The notes below the pieces were generated by a model. The model ran no database searches, was not told the DNA's origin, and saw only the letters and a list, made by a program, of their open reading frames with translations. The translations under genes were made by a program, and so were the position numbers. Below are positions 2,339-63,302 of a DNA stretch of 64,000 nucleotides, one piece after another. The first letter of the stretch is position 1, and each line of letters begins with the position of its first letter. The stretch comes from Rhizobium favelukesii (lineage in GTDB: Bacteria; Pseudomonadota; Alphaproteobacteria; Rhizobiales; Rhizobiaceae): assembly GCF_000577275.2 (NCBI RefSeq), contig NZ_HG916852.1, positions 4,040,001 to 4,104,000 of the forward strand. The letters run 5' to 3'.

Positions 2339-2393
2339 GGCACCTCTCCTCTGGTTTGCTTGAAGGGGAAAAGGGCGGTGCCAGATGTCACGC

Positions 2394-2489
2394 GTCTAAT
2401 CCCTCCGCCGGTGTTAGCCGGATCAGGTTCCGCGGGTTGGCTTTCAGCCTCTCAGCCGCGCACCGAATGGCACGAGGCACCCCGTTAGA
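2394..2489 (-). promoter_or_regulatory. TPP riboswitch (THI element)
   Basis: Read on the minus strand, this leader contains the conserved TPP aptamer blocks in order: GGGGTGCC, CTGAGA, ACCC followed by GAACCTGATC, and GGCGGAGGGA. They enclose the expected P3 and P4/P5 arms. It lies about 55 bases upstream of the thiB start codon, so it should reduce thiB-thiP expression when TPP binds. No long T-tract terminator is evident between aptamer and gene. Control by hiding the ribosome binding site is therefore more likely than attenuation, though this last point is inference. Confidence 0.95.
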
Positions 2490-2554
2490 GCGTTTGAAGA
2501 TGTATCGCCACGCTTGGTCTCTTGCAAGTGGCGGCCTCAGTCCGCCACCGGCAT

Positions 2555-9856: not shown

Positions 9857-10009
9857 TACGCGTCCCTAGCCGTCATTCTACTTCAATAAACATCGTGATT
9901 CGTTGTGTCCACCAACAGATTCTAGCAGTCATTAACGTGGGAGTGACTTCGCATCGACCCCTCCGTTCGTTTGGGCAATTGATTCGCAGGTCGACTAACG
10001 CTATTTAGA

Positions 10010-10070
10010 ACGCTCCGTGGTGATTTGGCCGGCCGGCTTGCAGCCACGTTAAAGAAGTCGCTAAAGGGCC
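10010..10070 (+). promoter_or_regulatory. SAM-II riboswitch
   Basis: The leader upstream of metA matches the alphaproteobacterial SAM-II (metA) motif. The P1 stem is CGTGG (10016-10020) pairing with CCACG (10044-10048). The conserved TGATTT follows the first strand, and the loop contains GGCTTGCAGCCACGTTAAAG. The 3' pseudoknot strand includes GTCGCTAAAGGG (ending at 10068). It ends about 50 bases before the metA start codon. S-adenosylmethionine binding should lower translation of metA, closing a feedback loop on methionine synthesis. Confidence 0.93.
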
Positions 10071-10119
10071 GCGTGCGGACCGATAGCGATGTATTCGTTG
10101 TTTTGATCGAGTGACCGCA

Positions 10120-59198: not shown

Positions 59199-59558
59199 AT
59201 GAAAAGCCCCGCCGCAGACACACTCACTCCGATTCTCCGCATCAGCTTTCCCCATCAAGACAGGCTTGGGCGCGGCAAGATGGAGCTGCTCGAACATATC
59301 AGGGACACGGGATCGATTTCCGCCGCCGGCAGAGCGATGGACATGTCCTATCGTCGCGCCTGGTTGCTTGTCAGCGACATGAACAGGATGTTCCGGGACC
59401 CCGTAGTCGAATCCCAGCGCGGTGGGCAGAAGGGAGGGGGTGCGGCTCTGACGCCGTTTGGCGATGAACTCCTTGCCCGCTTTCGAAAGATGGAGCGGAT
59501 GATGAAGTCCACGCTTGCGGAGGATCTGGCATGGCTGGAGGCCAACAGTAGTCGCTGA
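59199..59558 (+). CDS. ModE-like molybdenum regulator, DNA-binding domain only
   Basis: A 119-residue protein consisting of the ModE N-terminal winged helix: ISFPHQDRLGRGKMELLEHIRDTGSISAAGRAMDMSYRRAWLLVSDMNRMF, then GGQKGGGAALTPFGDELL. It lacks the C-terminal Mop/TOBE molybdate-binding domains of E. coli ModE, so it could sense molybdate through a partner (the ModC TOBE domain) or not at all. It is convergent with modC, with its stop immediately adjacent, and lies near the modABC genes it probably controls. Confidence 0.85.
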   Translation: MKSPAADTLTPILRISFPHQDRLGRGKMELLEHIRDTGSISAAGRAMDMSYRRAWLLVSDMNRMFRDPVVESQRGGQKGGGAALTPFGDELLARFRKMERMMKSTLAEDLAWLEANSSR

Positions 59559-62216: not shown

Positions 62217-62269
62217 AAATATAACGTTGCCAGCGACTTGGCCAGCGTTATATTTTCGTGAGCATAACC
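62217..62269. promoter_or_regulatory. ModE-box-like elements before modA
   Basis: AAATATAACG (62217-62226) and CGTTATATTT (62246-62255) form a perfect 10-base inverted repeat spaced by 19 bases. The second half-site continues to CATAACC (62263-62269). Together CGTTATA...CATAACC resembles the CGnTATA...TATAnCG layout of molybdenum boxes bound by ModE. A weaker partner lies to the left of the first half-site. The expected effect is repression of modABC by ModE when molybdate is sufficient. Confidence 0.65.
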
Positions 62270-62433
62270 ATCTGGTCGCTCGCCAACCCCCGACTTCACG
62301 CATTCGTGATGTGCATGGCTGAGCAATGCTACTCCTTGAAAACGCGAAAGCGACCCTAAAATTCTAGGGGAAAGCTTGCAGAGATCGTGATGCTTCGGCA
62401 GAAATCGTTGAGAATGCAAAAGAAATGAGCAAA

Positions 62434-62450
62434 CTGGAAACGGTTTCCAG
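62434..62450. promoter_or_regulatory. 17-base palindrome upstream of the small RNA
   Basis: CTGGAAACGGTTTCCAG is a perfect palindrome with a single centre base, of the CG-centred kind bound by LacI-type regulators. It lies about 70-85 bases before the predicted start of the intergenic RNA and is a candidate operator for it. The remainder of 62270-62433 shows no gene. Confidence 0.4.
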
Positions 62451-62520
62451 CTACAGCTATGCTCATGACGCATTGCTGCAATGCAATGGACTCGCTTCAA
62501 AAATCCGAGGACTATGGTAC

Positions 62521-62650
62521 AACACTTTCATCGAACGGCGATCTCCTCCTCCCAAAGCCGTTGGATATGGATCGGCAACACTCCTCCTCCCAGTTGTCGA
62601 TCAAGTTTATGAAGCCCGACGGATCTCCTCCCCCGTCGGGCTTTTCATTT
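62521..62650 (+). ncRNA. Predicted trans-acting small RNA, alpha-r14/NfeR1 (cuckoo) type
   Basis: The intergenic plus-strand segment folds into three hairpins. Hairpin 1 has AACGGC (62534-62539) with GCCGTT (62557-62562) and a loop containing CTCCTCCTCCC. Hairpin 2 has GATCGGCAAC (62570-62579) with GTTGTCGATC (62593-62602), again with CTCCTCCTCCC in the loop. Hairpin 3 has AAGCCCGACGG (62612-62622) with CCGTCGGGCTT (62633-62643) followed by TT, an intrinsic terminator with CTCCTCCC in its loop. Three anti-Shine-Dalgarno loops plus a terminator are the hallmark of the alpha-r14 family (NfeR1, cuckoo RNAs), which repress translation by pairing with ribosome binding sites. The 5' end near 62521 is an estimate. 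Confidence 0.82.
62612..62648 (+). terminator. Intrinsic terminator of the small RNA
   Basis: An 11-base stem (AAGCCCGACGG with CCGTCGGGCTT) is followed by TTCATTT. The loop carries a third CUCCUCC motif. Confidence 0.85.
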
Positions 62651-62672
62651 GCGCTCTCACGGAAAATCGAAC

Positions 62673-63302
62673 TTATTTCAAGGCACCGTTCGTGGCGCGG
62701 ATGGCGGTCGAGCTGAGGCCGGATCGAGGACCGTGTATGAACGTCCAGGCTGGTGCCCGCCGCTTCCAGAGCGCGCGGGAATCGTCCTCATCGATGCGAG
62801 CGAAATCAAATGTCCTCGCCATCTTCGACGACAGAAACGACAGCGTGGAGCCCGGCCGGTCGATAACGGCAATCGGAAATGTGTTGACGATGTCCTGCCA
62901 GCGTTGCCACAGATGGAAAGTCTTCAGGCTGTCCGCCCCCATGATCCAGATGAAATGGACATGCGGGTTGCGCGCTTTGACGCGCGCCAACGTGTTCGCC
63001 GTGAAGCTCGTCGCGAAATCACGCTCGAACGCCGTGATCTTGATCGAGGGATGTCGGGCAAGCCGCTCGCTCAAAACGATGCGTTCGGCAAGCGGCAGCA
63101 GATGCCGCCGATCCTTCAGCGGATTGCCGGGAGTGACCATCCACCACAACTGGTCGAGGCCGAGACGCTTGATTGCGATTTCGGCGACCAGCGCGTGTCC
63201 CTCATGCGGCGGATTGAACGAACCGCCGAAAAGACCGACCACCATGCCCCGCTCGCTATGCGGCATGCGAAAGCAACGCCGGTCGATTTCGTCGTTGATC
63301 AC
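62673..63302 (-). CDS. nadD: Nicotinate-nucleotide adenylyltransferase
   Basis: Makes nicotinic acid adenine dinucleotide in NAD synthesis. The 209-residue product has the nucleotidyltransferase signature GLFGGSFNPPHEGH near residue 23, WWMVTPGNPLKD, HFIWIMGADSLKTFHLWQRW, and the ISSTAIR-type motif as GLSSTAIRA near the end. GTG at 63302 gives the normal N-terminal extension seen in Rhizobiaceae. It begins one base after the proA stop, so the two genes are coupled. Confidence 0.96.
   Translation of the reverse strand: MINDEIDRRCFRMPHSERGMVVGLFGGSFNPPHEGHALVAEIAIKRLGLDQLWWMVTPGNPLKDRRHLLPLAERIVLSERLARHPSIKITAFERDFATSFTANTLARVKARNPHVHFIWIMGADSLKTFHLWQRWQDIVNTFPIAVIDRPGSTLSFLSSKMARTFDFARIDEDDSRALWKRRAPAWTFIHGPRSGLSSTAIRATNGALK

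What the first reader, a model, noticed from the sequence alone, without database searches (positions are those of the whole stretch)
62521..62650. Unannotated anti-Shine-Dalgarno small RNA (alpha-r14/NfeR1-like) between modA and nadD
The gap holds three adjacent hairpins whose loops all display CUCCUCC-type sequence complementary to ribosome binding sites, and the third hairpin is a T-tract terminator. The stems include G-T pairing in hairpin 2 (GATCGGCAAC with GTTGTCGATC), the kind of pairing that preserves structure over sequence. This architecture matches the Rhizobiales alpha-r14 (NfeR1/cuckoo) sRNAs, which are stress-regulated multi-target repressors. The locus next to molybdate uptake genes deserves attention.
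Basis: partly seen in the sequence, partly recalled or inferred. Interest (0 to 1): 0.72.

Follow-up and report, generated by a model that had tools for sequence, protein, structure and literature searches.

The report
Known rhizobial ar14 regulatory RNA
A short RNA gene between nadD and modA in a Rhizobium genome belongs to a well-described family of small RNAs thought to shut down many messenger RNAs by covering their ribosome-binding sites; the gene looks real and conserved, but its kind is already known.

Summary
Window 62525-62648 (+) matches Rfam family ar14 (RF02344) at 101.3 bits (cut-off 58.8) and folds into three hairpins with CUCCUCC loops, the last terminator-like. It is one of eight copies over the cut-off in its genome; 100 of 100 genus genomes have the family. 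Of 80 NadD-anchored Rhizobium-type loci, 79 carry CTCCTCC repeats there. In 68 distinct sequences loops stay fixed while stems covary (12 of 32 pairs changed on both sides). Upstream DNA repeats the published NfeR1 promoter plan: an NtrC-type motif (62415-62431) 45 nt before a TGC-N7-GCA box (from 62460) that overlaps an exact LsrB consensus (62470-62482). The likely mechanism is an LsrB-activated, NtrC-repressed, multi-target translation repressor. The molybdate link looks incidental: six loci keep the repeats with modA absent or farther off. The new detail is modest: 41 of 60 genus genomes hold two or three copies of the promoter 15-mer, and among 31 such loci the exact NtrC motif stood at the expected place only beside nadD (12 of 18 against 0 of 13). 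Expression, start site, protein binding and targets were not testable.

The parts
62525..62648 (+). ar14-family sRNA gene (whole Rfam model 1-123)
   Evidence: cmscan RF02344, 101.3 bits, gathering 58.8; fold z -5.56
62530..62566 (+). hairpin 1; loop GATCTCCTCCTCCCAAA (aSDa)
   Evidence: MFE structure; 6 of 10 pairs have both-side changes among 68 sequences
62570..62602 (+). hairpin 2; loop ACTCCTCCTCCCA (aSDb)
   Evidence: MFE structure; 100% of cells paired, 4 of 10 pairs with both-side changes
62611..62644 (+). hairpin 3; loop ATCTCCTCCC (aSDc), terminator-like, followed by TTTTCATTT
   Evidence: MFE structure; innermost pair exchanged G-C 53, C-G 14, A-U 1; sequence
62415..62431 (+). NtrC-type motif TGC-N11-GCA
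   Evidence: at the equivalent position in 56 of 80 sequences (79 loci plus the window); motif as published for the nfeR1 promoter (PMC10746234)
62460..62473 (+). first LsrB/LysR-type box TGCT-N6-GCAT (T-N11-A)
   Evidence: TGC-N7-GCA at this position in 67 of 80; one of the four over-cut-off ar15 (AbcR-type) promoters of this genome, beside a LysR-type gene, has TGCA-N6-GCAT
62470..62482 (+). LsrB consensus GCAT-N3-TG-N3-T, overlapping the first box; within the 15-mer GCATTGCTGCAATGC
   Evidence: 77 of 80; consensus quoted in PMC8844928 (passage)
62512..62518 (+). possible -10 element CTATGGT; no good -35 match at the expected spacing
   Evidence: read from the sequence, compared with CTTAGAC-N17-CTATAT quoted in PMC10746234
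61399..62184 (-). modA, neighbour, divergent from the sRNA
   Evidence: NCBIfam over cut-off
62673..63302 (-). nadD, neighbour, convergent with the sRNA
   Evidence: NCBIfam over cut-off

Best explanation
This is an independently transcribed trans-acting sRNA of the ar14 (NfeR1/cuckoo) family. Inferred mechanism: the LysR-type regulator LsrB binds the tandem boxes around -65 to -43 and recruits RNA polymerase to a weak sigma-70 promoter, while NtrC bound around -110 blocks this when nitrogen is ample. The roughly 124-nt RNA ends at hairpin 3. Its three single-stranded CUCCUCC loops pair redundantly with purine-rich ribosome-binding sites, keep 30S subunits off, and so repress many mRNAs, likely ABC-transporter mRNAs and ntrB. 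Shown here: family membership, predicted structure, covariation, and conservation of promoter motifs and locus. Inferred from S. meliloti NfeR1: transcription, regulator binding, targets and repression. The confidence given is for the identity as an ar14 sRNA gene with an NfeR1-type promoter plan; the mechanism in this organism is less certain.
For: RF02344 at 101.3 bits against 58.8. Fold z -5.56. 79 of 80 NadD-anchored loci carry CTCCTCC repeats after nadD. In 68 distinct sequences 96.3% of cells pair, 12 pairs change on both sides (shuffled mean 4.8), and covariation is 0.148 against 0.089 shuffled and at most 0.059 when slid. CCTCCTCCC (hairpins 1, 2) and TCCTCCC (hairpin 3) are invariant in 36 copies from this and other genera while stems differ. 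NtrC-type motif in 56 of 80, TGC-N7-GCA in 67 of 80, LsrB consensus in 77 of 80, each within a window of a few positions; of 51 sequences with both of the first two, 49 have 44 or 45 nt between them and 2 have 43. The 15-mer occurs in 55 of 60 genus genomes, with one hit for the reversed control, and is followed by aSD repeats in 29 of 31 loci examined. S. meliloti NfeR1 biology: PMC10746234 (abstract, passages, and sections 3, 5, 8, 12, 13 read).
Against: There is no RNA-seq, start-site or binding data for this gene. The -35 is poor and the -10 only partial. TGC-N11-GCA is missing at the equivalent position in 24 of 80 sequences, many of them R. tropici/rhizogenes-type loci, and the TGC-N7-GCA box in 13 of 80. 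Helix 1 is 93.7% paired, the outermost pair of helix 3 is unpaired in 38 of 68, and one of five covariation measures (further pair types, 24) is reached by 29 of 500 shuffles. In S. meliloti only one of six copies was reliably seen on northern blots (PMC7143759 passage), so this copy may be silent. The repeats in the 79 loci were found by pattern; only 3 of the 79 (L050, L055, L095) were put to Rfam, all positive.
Confidence: 0.9

Rival explanations
1. A local regulator of the molybdate system: the sRNA represses its divergent neighbour modA by pairing with GGGGAGAGAUC just before the modA start.
For: Duplexes with the window modA leader are -16.7 or -17.3 (aSDa, two cuts of the loop), -10.6 (aSDb) and -19.4 kcal/mol (aSDc); for the ntrB leader -12.3, -13.3 and -14.4. 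ModA matches in 76 of 80 loci and lies near the sRNA in 73.
Against: GAGAUC next to the start is present in only some of the closest relatives (L016, L017, L022 among the leaders printed); most other modA leaders printed carry ordinary Shine-Dalgarno runs. In the window modC scores as well (-21.4), and over loci modC averages -17.7 (75 loci) against -12.7 for modA (76 loci); some start codons there may be misplaced, for example L036. The repeats persist in L050, L055, L095 without modA in the stretch and in L060, L062, L064 with modA farther off.
Confidence: 0.1
2. A silent or redundant paralogue: the gene is a conserved ar14 copy but contributes little, the work being done by another of the eight copies, such as L001, which has the same LsrB-type promoter.
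For: Eight copies over cut-off in this genome. L001 carries the TGC-N7-GCA box and the 15-mer. In S. meliloti one of six copies was reliably detected (PMC7143759 passage).
Against: The nadD copy keeps stem covariation and promoter motifs over the 79 loci, which argues for selection on this copy.
Confidence: 0.15
3. Only a terminator or cis element of nadD, not a separate RNA.
For: The model match ends 24 bp from the nadD stop codon, and hairpin 3 could also slow transcription arriving from nadD.
Against: Full-length ar14 model match on the strand opposite to nadD, its own upstream motifs, and the same RNA family at other places in this genome and in other genera.
Confidence: 0.02

Closest known systems
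ar14 sRNA family (Rfam RF02344), founding member S. meliloti NfeR1 (Smr14C2, SmelC397)
   Same: Three hairpins with CCUCCUCCC-type loops, variable covarying stems, about 120 nt, several copies per genome, LsrB- and NtrC-type promoter motifs with nearly the published spacing
   Different: Located between nadD and modA, a placement seen here only in Rhizobium-type loci; the third loop has UCUCCUCCC; both motifs sit about 6-7 nt closer to the model start than the S. meliloti positions are to its start site; not shown to be expressed
Cuckoo RNA family and the RFMSmelA075/RFMSmelA099 models (three and four hairpins; PMC3927594, passages and section 2.7 read; the cuckoo RNA paper itself is not held)
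   Same: Repeated aSD hairpin modules, multi-copy, stress-linked
   Different: The window gene has three modules; L002, L003 and L008 of the same genome show a further upstream aSD motif, as in the four-hairpin model
CcsR1 (Rfam RF02791; Rhodobacter origin recalled and from listings only)
   Same: CCUCCUCCC hairpin loops
   Different: Scores 40.2 bits, below the 65.3 cut-off
AbcR1/AbcR2 (ar15, Rfam RF02345)
   Same: aSD loops; one ar15 promoter in this genome has the LsrB-type motif
   Different: A separate Rfam family found at other loci; AbcR1/2 bind Hfq, NfeR1 is reported Hfq-independent (PMC8844928 passages; PMC10746234 section 3)

Membership tests
ar14 (RF02344) | Covariance-model score over the gathering cut-off, full length | tested here: met
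   101.3 vs 58.8 bits, model 1-123
ar14 (RF02344) | Three hairpins each with an unpaired CCUCCUCCC loop | tested here: met
   Three hairpins; loops 1 and 2 exact, loop 3 UCUCCUCCC, 8 of 9 letters
ar14 (RF02344) | Stems variable in sequence but conserved in pairing | tested here: met
   12 of 32 pairs with both-side changes, 96.3% of cells paired; family-wide alignment
ar14 / NfeR1 | Sigma-70 promoter CTTAGAC-N17-CTATAT | tested here: inconclusive
   CTATGGT at 62512-62518; the -35 at 62488-62494 (GGACTCG) is poor
NfeR1 | LsrB-type motif upstream of the core promoter | tested here: met
   TGCT-N6-GCAT 62460-62473 (published TGCA-N6-GCAT, one letter off) and GCAT-N3-TG-N3-T 62470-62482; TGC-N7-GCA in 67 and the consensus in 77 of 80. 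Motif only, binding not tested
NfeR1 | NtrC motif TGC-N11-GCA upstream of the LsrB motif | tested here: met
   62415-62431, 45 nt start to start; 56 of 80 at this position. Motif only
NfeR1 | Positional or phylogenetic orthology to S. meliloti nfeR1 | not tested
   The S. meliloti locus was not fetched; L001 is another candidate in this genome
NfeR1 | Represses ntrB via the aSD loops | tested here: inconclusive
   Leader of the ntrB-like gene has GGGAGG, complementary to CCUCCC; duplexes -12.3 to -14.4 kcal/mol, no more than SD pairing
NfeR1 | Induction by nitrogen or salt stress; Hfq independence | not testable with these tools
   Needs RNA and protein experiments
CcsR1 (RF02791) | Score over the gathering cut-off | tested here: not met
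   40.2 vs 65.3 bits

The most novel reading that the evidence does not exclude
Genus Rhizobium runs a doubled NfeR1 circuit. Many genomes keep two ar14 genes with the same LsrB-type promoter. The copy that entered the nadD-rsfS gap in the Rhizobium lineage carries the canonical NtrC site, the other a degenerate one, so the two RNAs with interchangeable loops would answer nitrogen status with different thresholds and together tune ntrBC and nutrient uptake.
Probability: 0.3. Interest if true: 0.4.

Novelty: new member of a known kind. Interest (0 to 1): 0.22.

Why it matters
It fixes the identity of an intergenic gene present at this place in 79 of 80 Rhizobium-type loci examined. It also offers a testable point about sRNA family evolution: same loops and same activator motif, but an NtrC motif that differs between copies. 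If binding follows the motifs, the NtrC-NfeR1 loop described in S. meliloti may be spread over two genes in Rhizobium.

Tried and rejected
Molybdate link: tested by synteny and by leader complementarity over 76 loci with a modA match; not supported as a conserved feature. Coding reading: the overlapping ORF 62459-62716 (+) has no Pfam match and spans the three hairpins; rejected. CcsR1 membership: below cut-off. Four-hairpin novelty: L002, L003 and L008 have a further upstream CCTCCTCC, but four-hairpin members were described in 2011 (PMC3927594). The palindrome TGGAAACGGTTTCCA at 62435-62449 is in 2 of 80 sequences, the window and L016, so it was dropped. L001 flank proteins had no match in L002-L008 or L134-L162, so L001 synteny was not pursued. 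First alignments mixed strands and were replaced. Paper searches: 3 or more of the terms 'rhizobium', 'small rna', 'ar14', 'nadD' gave 0 papers; the R. etli tiling-array paper PMC2881028 has no main-text hit for modA, nadD, Smr14 and three further terms. These do not show that the locus is unreported: most subscription papers are not held and no supplement was read.

Full report
What is there. Window 62525-62648 (+), between modA and nadD, matches the whole Rfam ar14 model (RF02344) at 101.3 bits, cut-off 58.8, E 1.6e-17 over the 64-kb window. Folded alone it gives three hairpins, -48.2 kcal/mol, z -5.56, 0 of 200 shuffles as stable. Loops 1 and 2 hold CCTCCTCCC exactly; loop 3 holds TCTCCTCCC. 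A related family, CcsR1, scores 40.2 bits, under its 65.3 cut-off. ModA, NadD and RsfS are over NCBIfam cut-offs; the 59199-59558 ORF matches the ModE repressor domain just under its cut-off (85.8 vs 98.5).

How common. The window's genome has 8 ar14 copies over the cut-off (L001-L008; L007 is this one) and 7 weaker matches up to E 10. In 100 genus genomes (this one included, drawn from a larger group) 100 have a match over the cut-off, 3 to 10 matches each. In a family-wide draw of 61 genomes (two of this genus) 59 have a match at E 1e-6 or better and 56 are over the cut-off.

This locus in relatives. CTCCTCC repeats lie downstream of nadD in 79 of 80. The exception, L094 (R. populisoli), has nadD followed by rsfS after 168 bp, no ModA match and no ar14 match in its 8.6 kb. 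ModA matches in 76 of 80 loci (not L050, L055, L094, L095); in L060, L062 and L064 it lies farther off. Of the 30 best NadD loci in a draw of 61 genomes of the family, 28 are from other genera: none of the 28 has an ar14 match or a ModA match within the fetched flanks (at most 1.5 kb), 18 show rsfS 76-303 bp after nadD, and in 10 rsfS was not found; the other genomes were not looked at. The simplest reading is that the sRNA and the mod genes entered the nadD-rsfS gap in the Rhizobium lineage and that the two are not functionally tied; this is inference from synteny, without a tree.

Structure under selection. I aligned the window copy with the 67 distinct sequences among the 79 (12 duplicates dropped). 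With the window's own fold plus one added pair, 96.3% of cells pair (shuffled mean 93.4), 12 of 32 pairs change on both sides (4.8), and covariation is 0.148 (0.089; slides at most 0.059); further pair types, 24, are reached by 29 of 500 shuffles. The structure came from one of the sequences, which favours it over the slides, and shuffles ignore relatedness, so I lean on the both-side changes (0 of 500 shuffles reach the count). Weak points: the outer pair of helix 3 is unpaired in 38 of 68, and helix 1 is 93.7% paired. Across 36 copies (the window, 6 other copies of this genome, and the best-match loci L134-L162, one of them from this genus) the loop letters CCTCCTCCC (hairpins 1 and 2) and TCCTCCC (hairpin 3) are invariant while stems differ; being high-scoring matches, they favour that result.

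Promoter. In S. meliloti the nfeR1 promoter has an LsrB motif TGCA-N6-GCAT and an NtrC motif TGC-N11-GCA upstream, acting as activator and repressor sites (PMC10746234, sections 5 and 12). The window has TGC-N11-GCA at 62415-62431, TGCT-N6-GCAT at 62460-62473 and GCAT-N3-TG-N3-T, the LsrB consensus quoted in PMC8844928 (passage), at 62470-62482. The start-to-start distance of 45 nt fits the published coordinates, and the combination TGC-N11-GCA plus TGC-N7-GCA at this spacing occurs once in the window on both strands. Over 80 sequences (79 loci plus window) these motifs occur at the expected place in 56, 67 (TGC-N7-GCA) and 77, against backgrounds near 0.0005, 0.0003-0.0004 and 0.00008 per position; the sequences are related, so these are not independent events. 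Of 51 sequences with both of the first two, 49 have 44 or 45 nt between them, 2 have 43. The same genome has four ar15 (AbcR-type) RNAs over the cut-off; one of them, next to a LysR-type gene, carries TGCA-N6-GCAT in its promoter, the other three do not. Calling that gene lsrB rests on its place; it reaches no cut-off among the 25 NCBIfam models shown.

Copies with one promoter plan. The 15-mer GCATTGCTGCANTGC, chosen from these alignments, is found in 55 of 60 genus genomes, twice or three times in 41 of 60, with one hit for the reversed control; in this genome the exact hits are at L001 and L007. Of 31 fetched loci with it (30 listed including L126, plus L127), 29 are followed by aSD repeats (not L208, L214). 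18 have nadD in the fetched stretch and 13 do not. TGC-N11-GCA stands 40-49 nt before the TGC-N7-GCA position in 12 of 18 nadD copies and 0 of 13 others; in 9 of those 13 the best of ten offsets has one mismatch, 7 of them TGC-N11-GCG. So, in the loci examined, the canonical NtrC motif marks the nadD copy. Some other-genus ar14 copies also have TGC-N7-GCA near -66.

How it most likely works. Inferred from S. meliloti NfeR1: LsrB activates, NtrC blocks, and the three redundant loops occupy Shine-Dalgarno sequences of many mRNAs. In this genome the kinase gene after a dus gene (best NCBIfam match nitrogen regulation protein NR(II), 195.2 bits, below that model's cut-off of 240) has leader GGGAGG and gives duplexes of -12.3 to -14.4 kcal/mol; modA gives -10.6 to -19.4. 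These are ordinary SD-type pairings; over loci modC scores better than modA. No target is established here.

Verdict. It is a conserved member of a known sRNA family, in a place so far seen only in this genus, with a published type of promoter. Interest is low to moderate.

Noticed in passing
window 62217-62255: Inverted repeat AAATATAACG...CGTTATATTT upstream of modA, which looks like a molybdate-responsive ModE box (label recalled, not searched); a ModE-domain ORF lies at 59199-59558.
   Followed up: no
window 10007-10084 (+) and 2383-2494 (-): SAM_alpha riboswitch (81.6 bits) and TPP riboswitch (66.1 bits) matches over their Rfam cut-offs.
   Followed up: no
L002, L003, L008 (own genome): ar14 copies with a fourth aSD motif upstream of the Rfam model start; in L002/L003 the promoter-like palindrome is shifted upstream by about 38-39 nt, as expected if the extra hairpin is transcribed. 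L005 shows a similar CTCCTCCC upstream.
   Followed up: partly
L002 and L003 (contigs C61 and C62 of the own genome): The two ar14 copies are identical in the RNA and in 402 nt upstream, with only 27 nt identical downstream, suggesting a recent copy between contigs or replicons.
   Followed up: partly
L094 (Rhizobium populisoli): nadD and rsfS are adjacent with neither mod genes nor the sRNA in the stretch, the arrangement also seen in other genera.
   Followed up: partly
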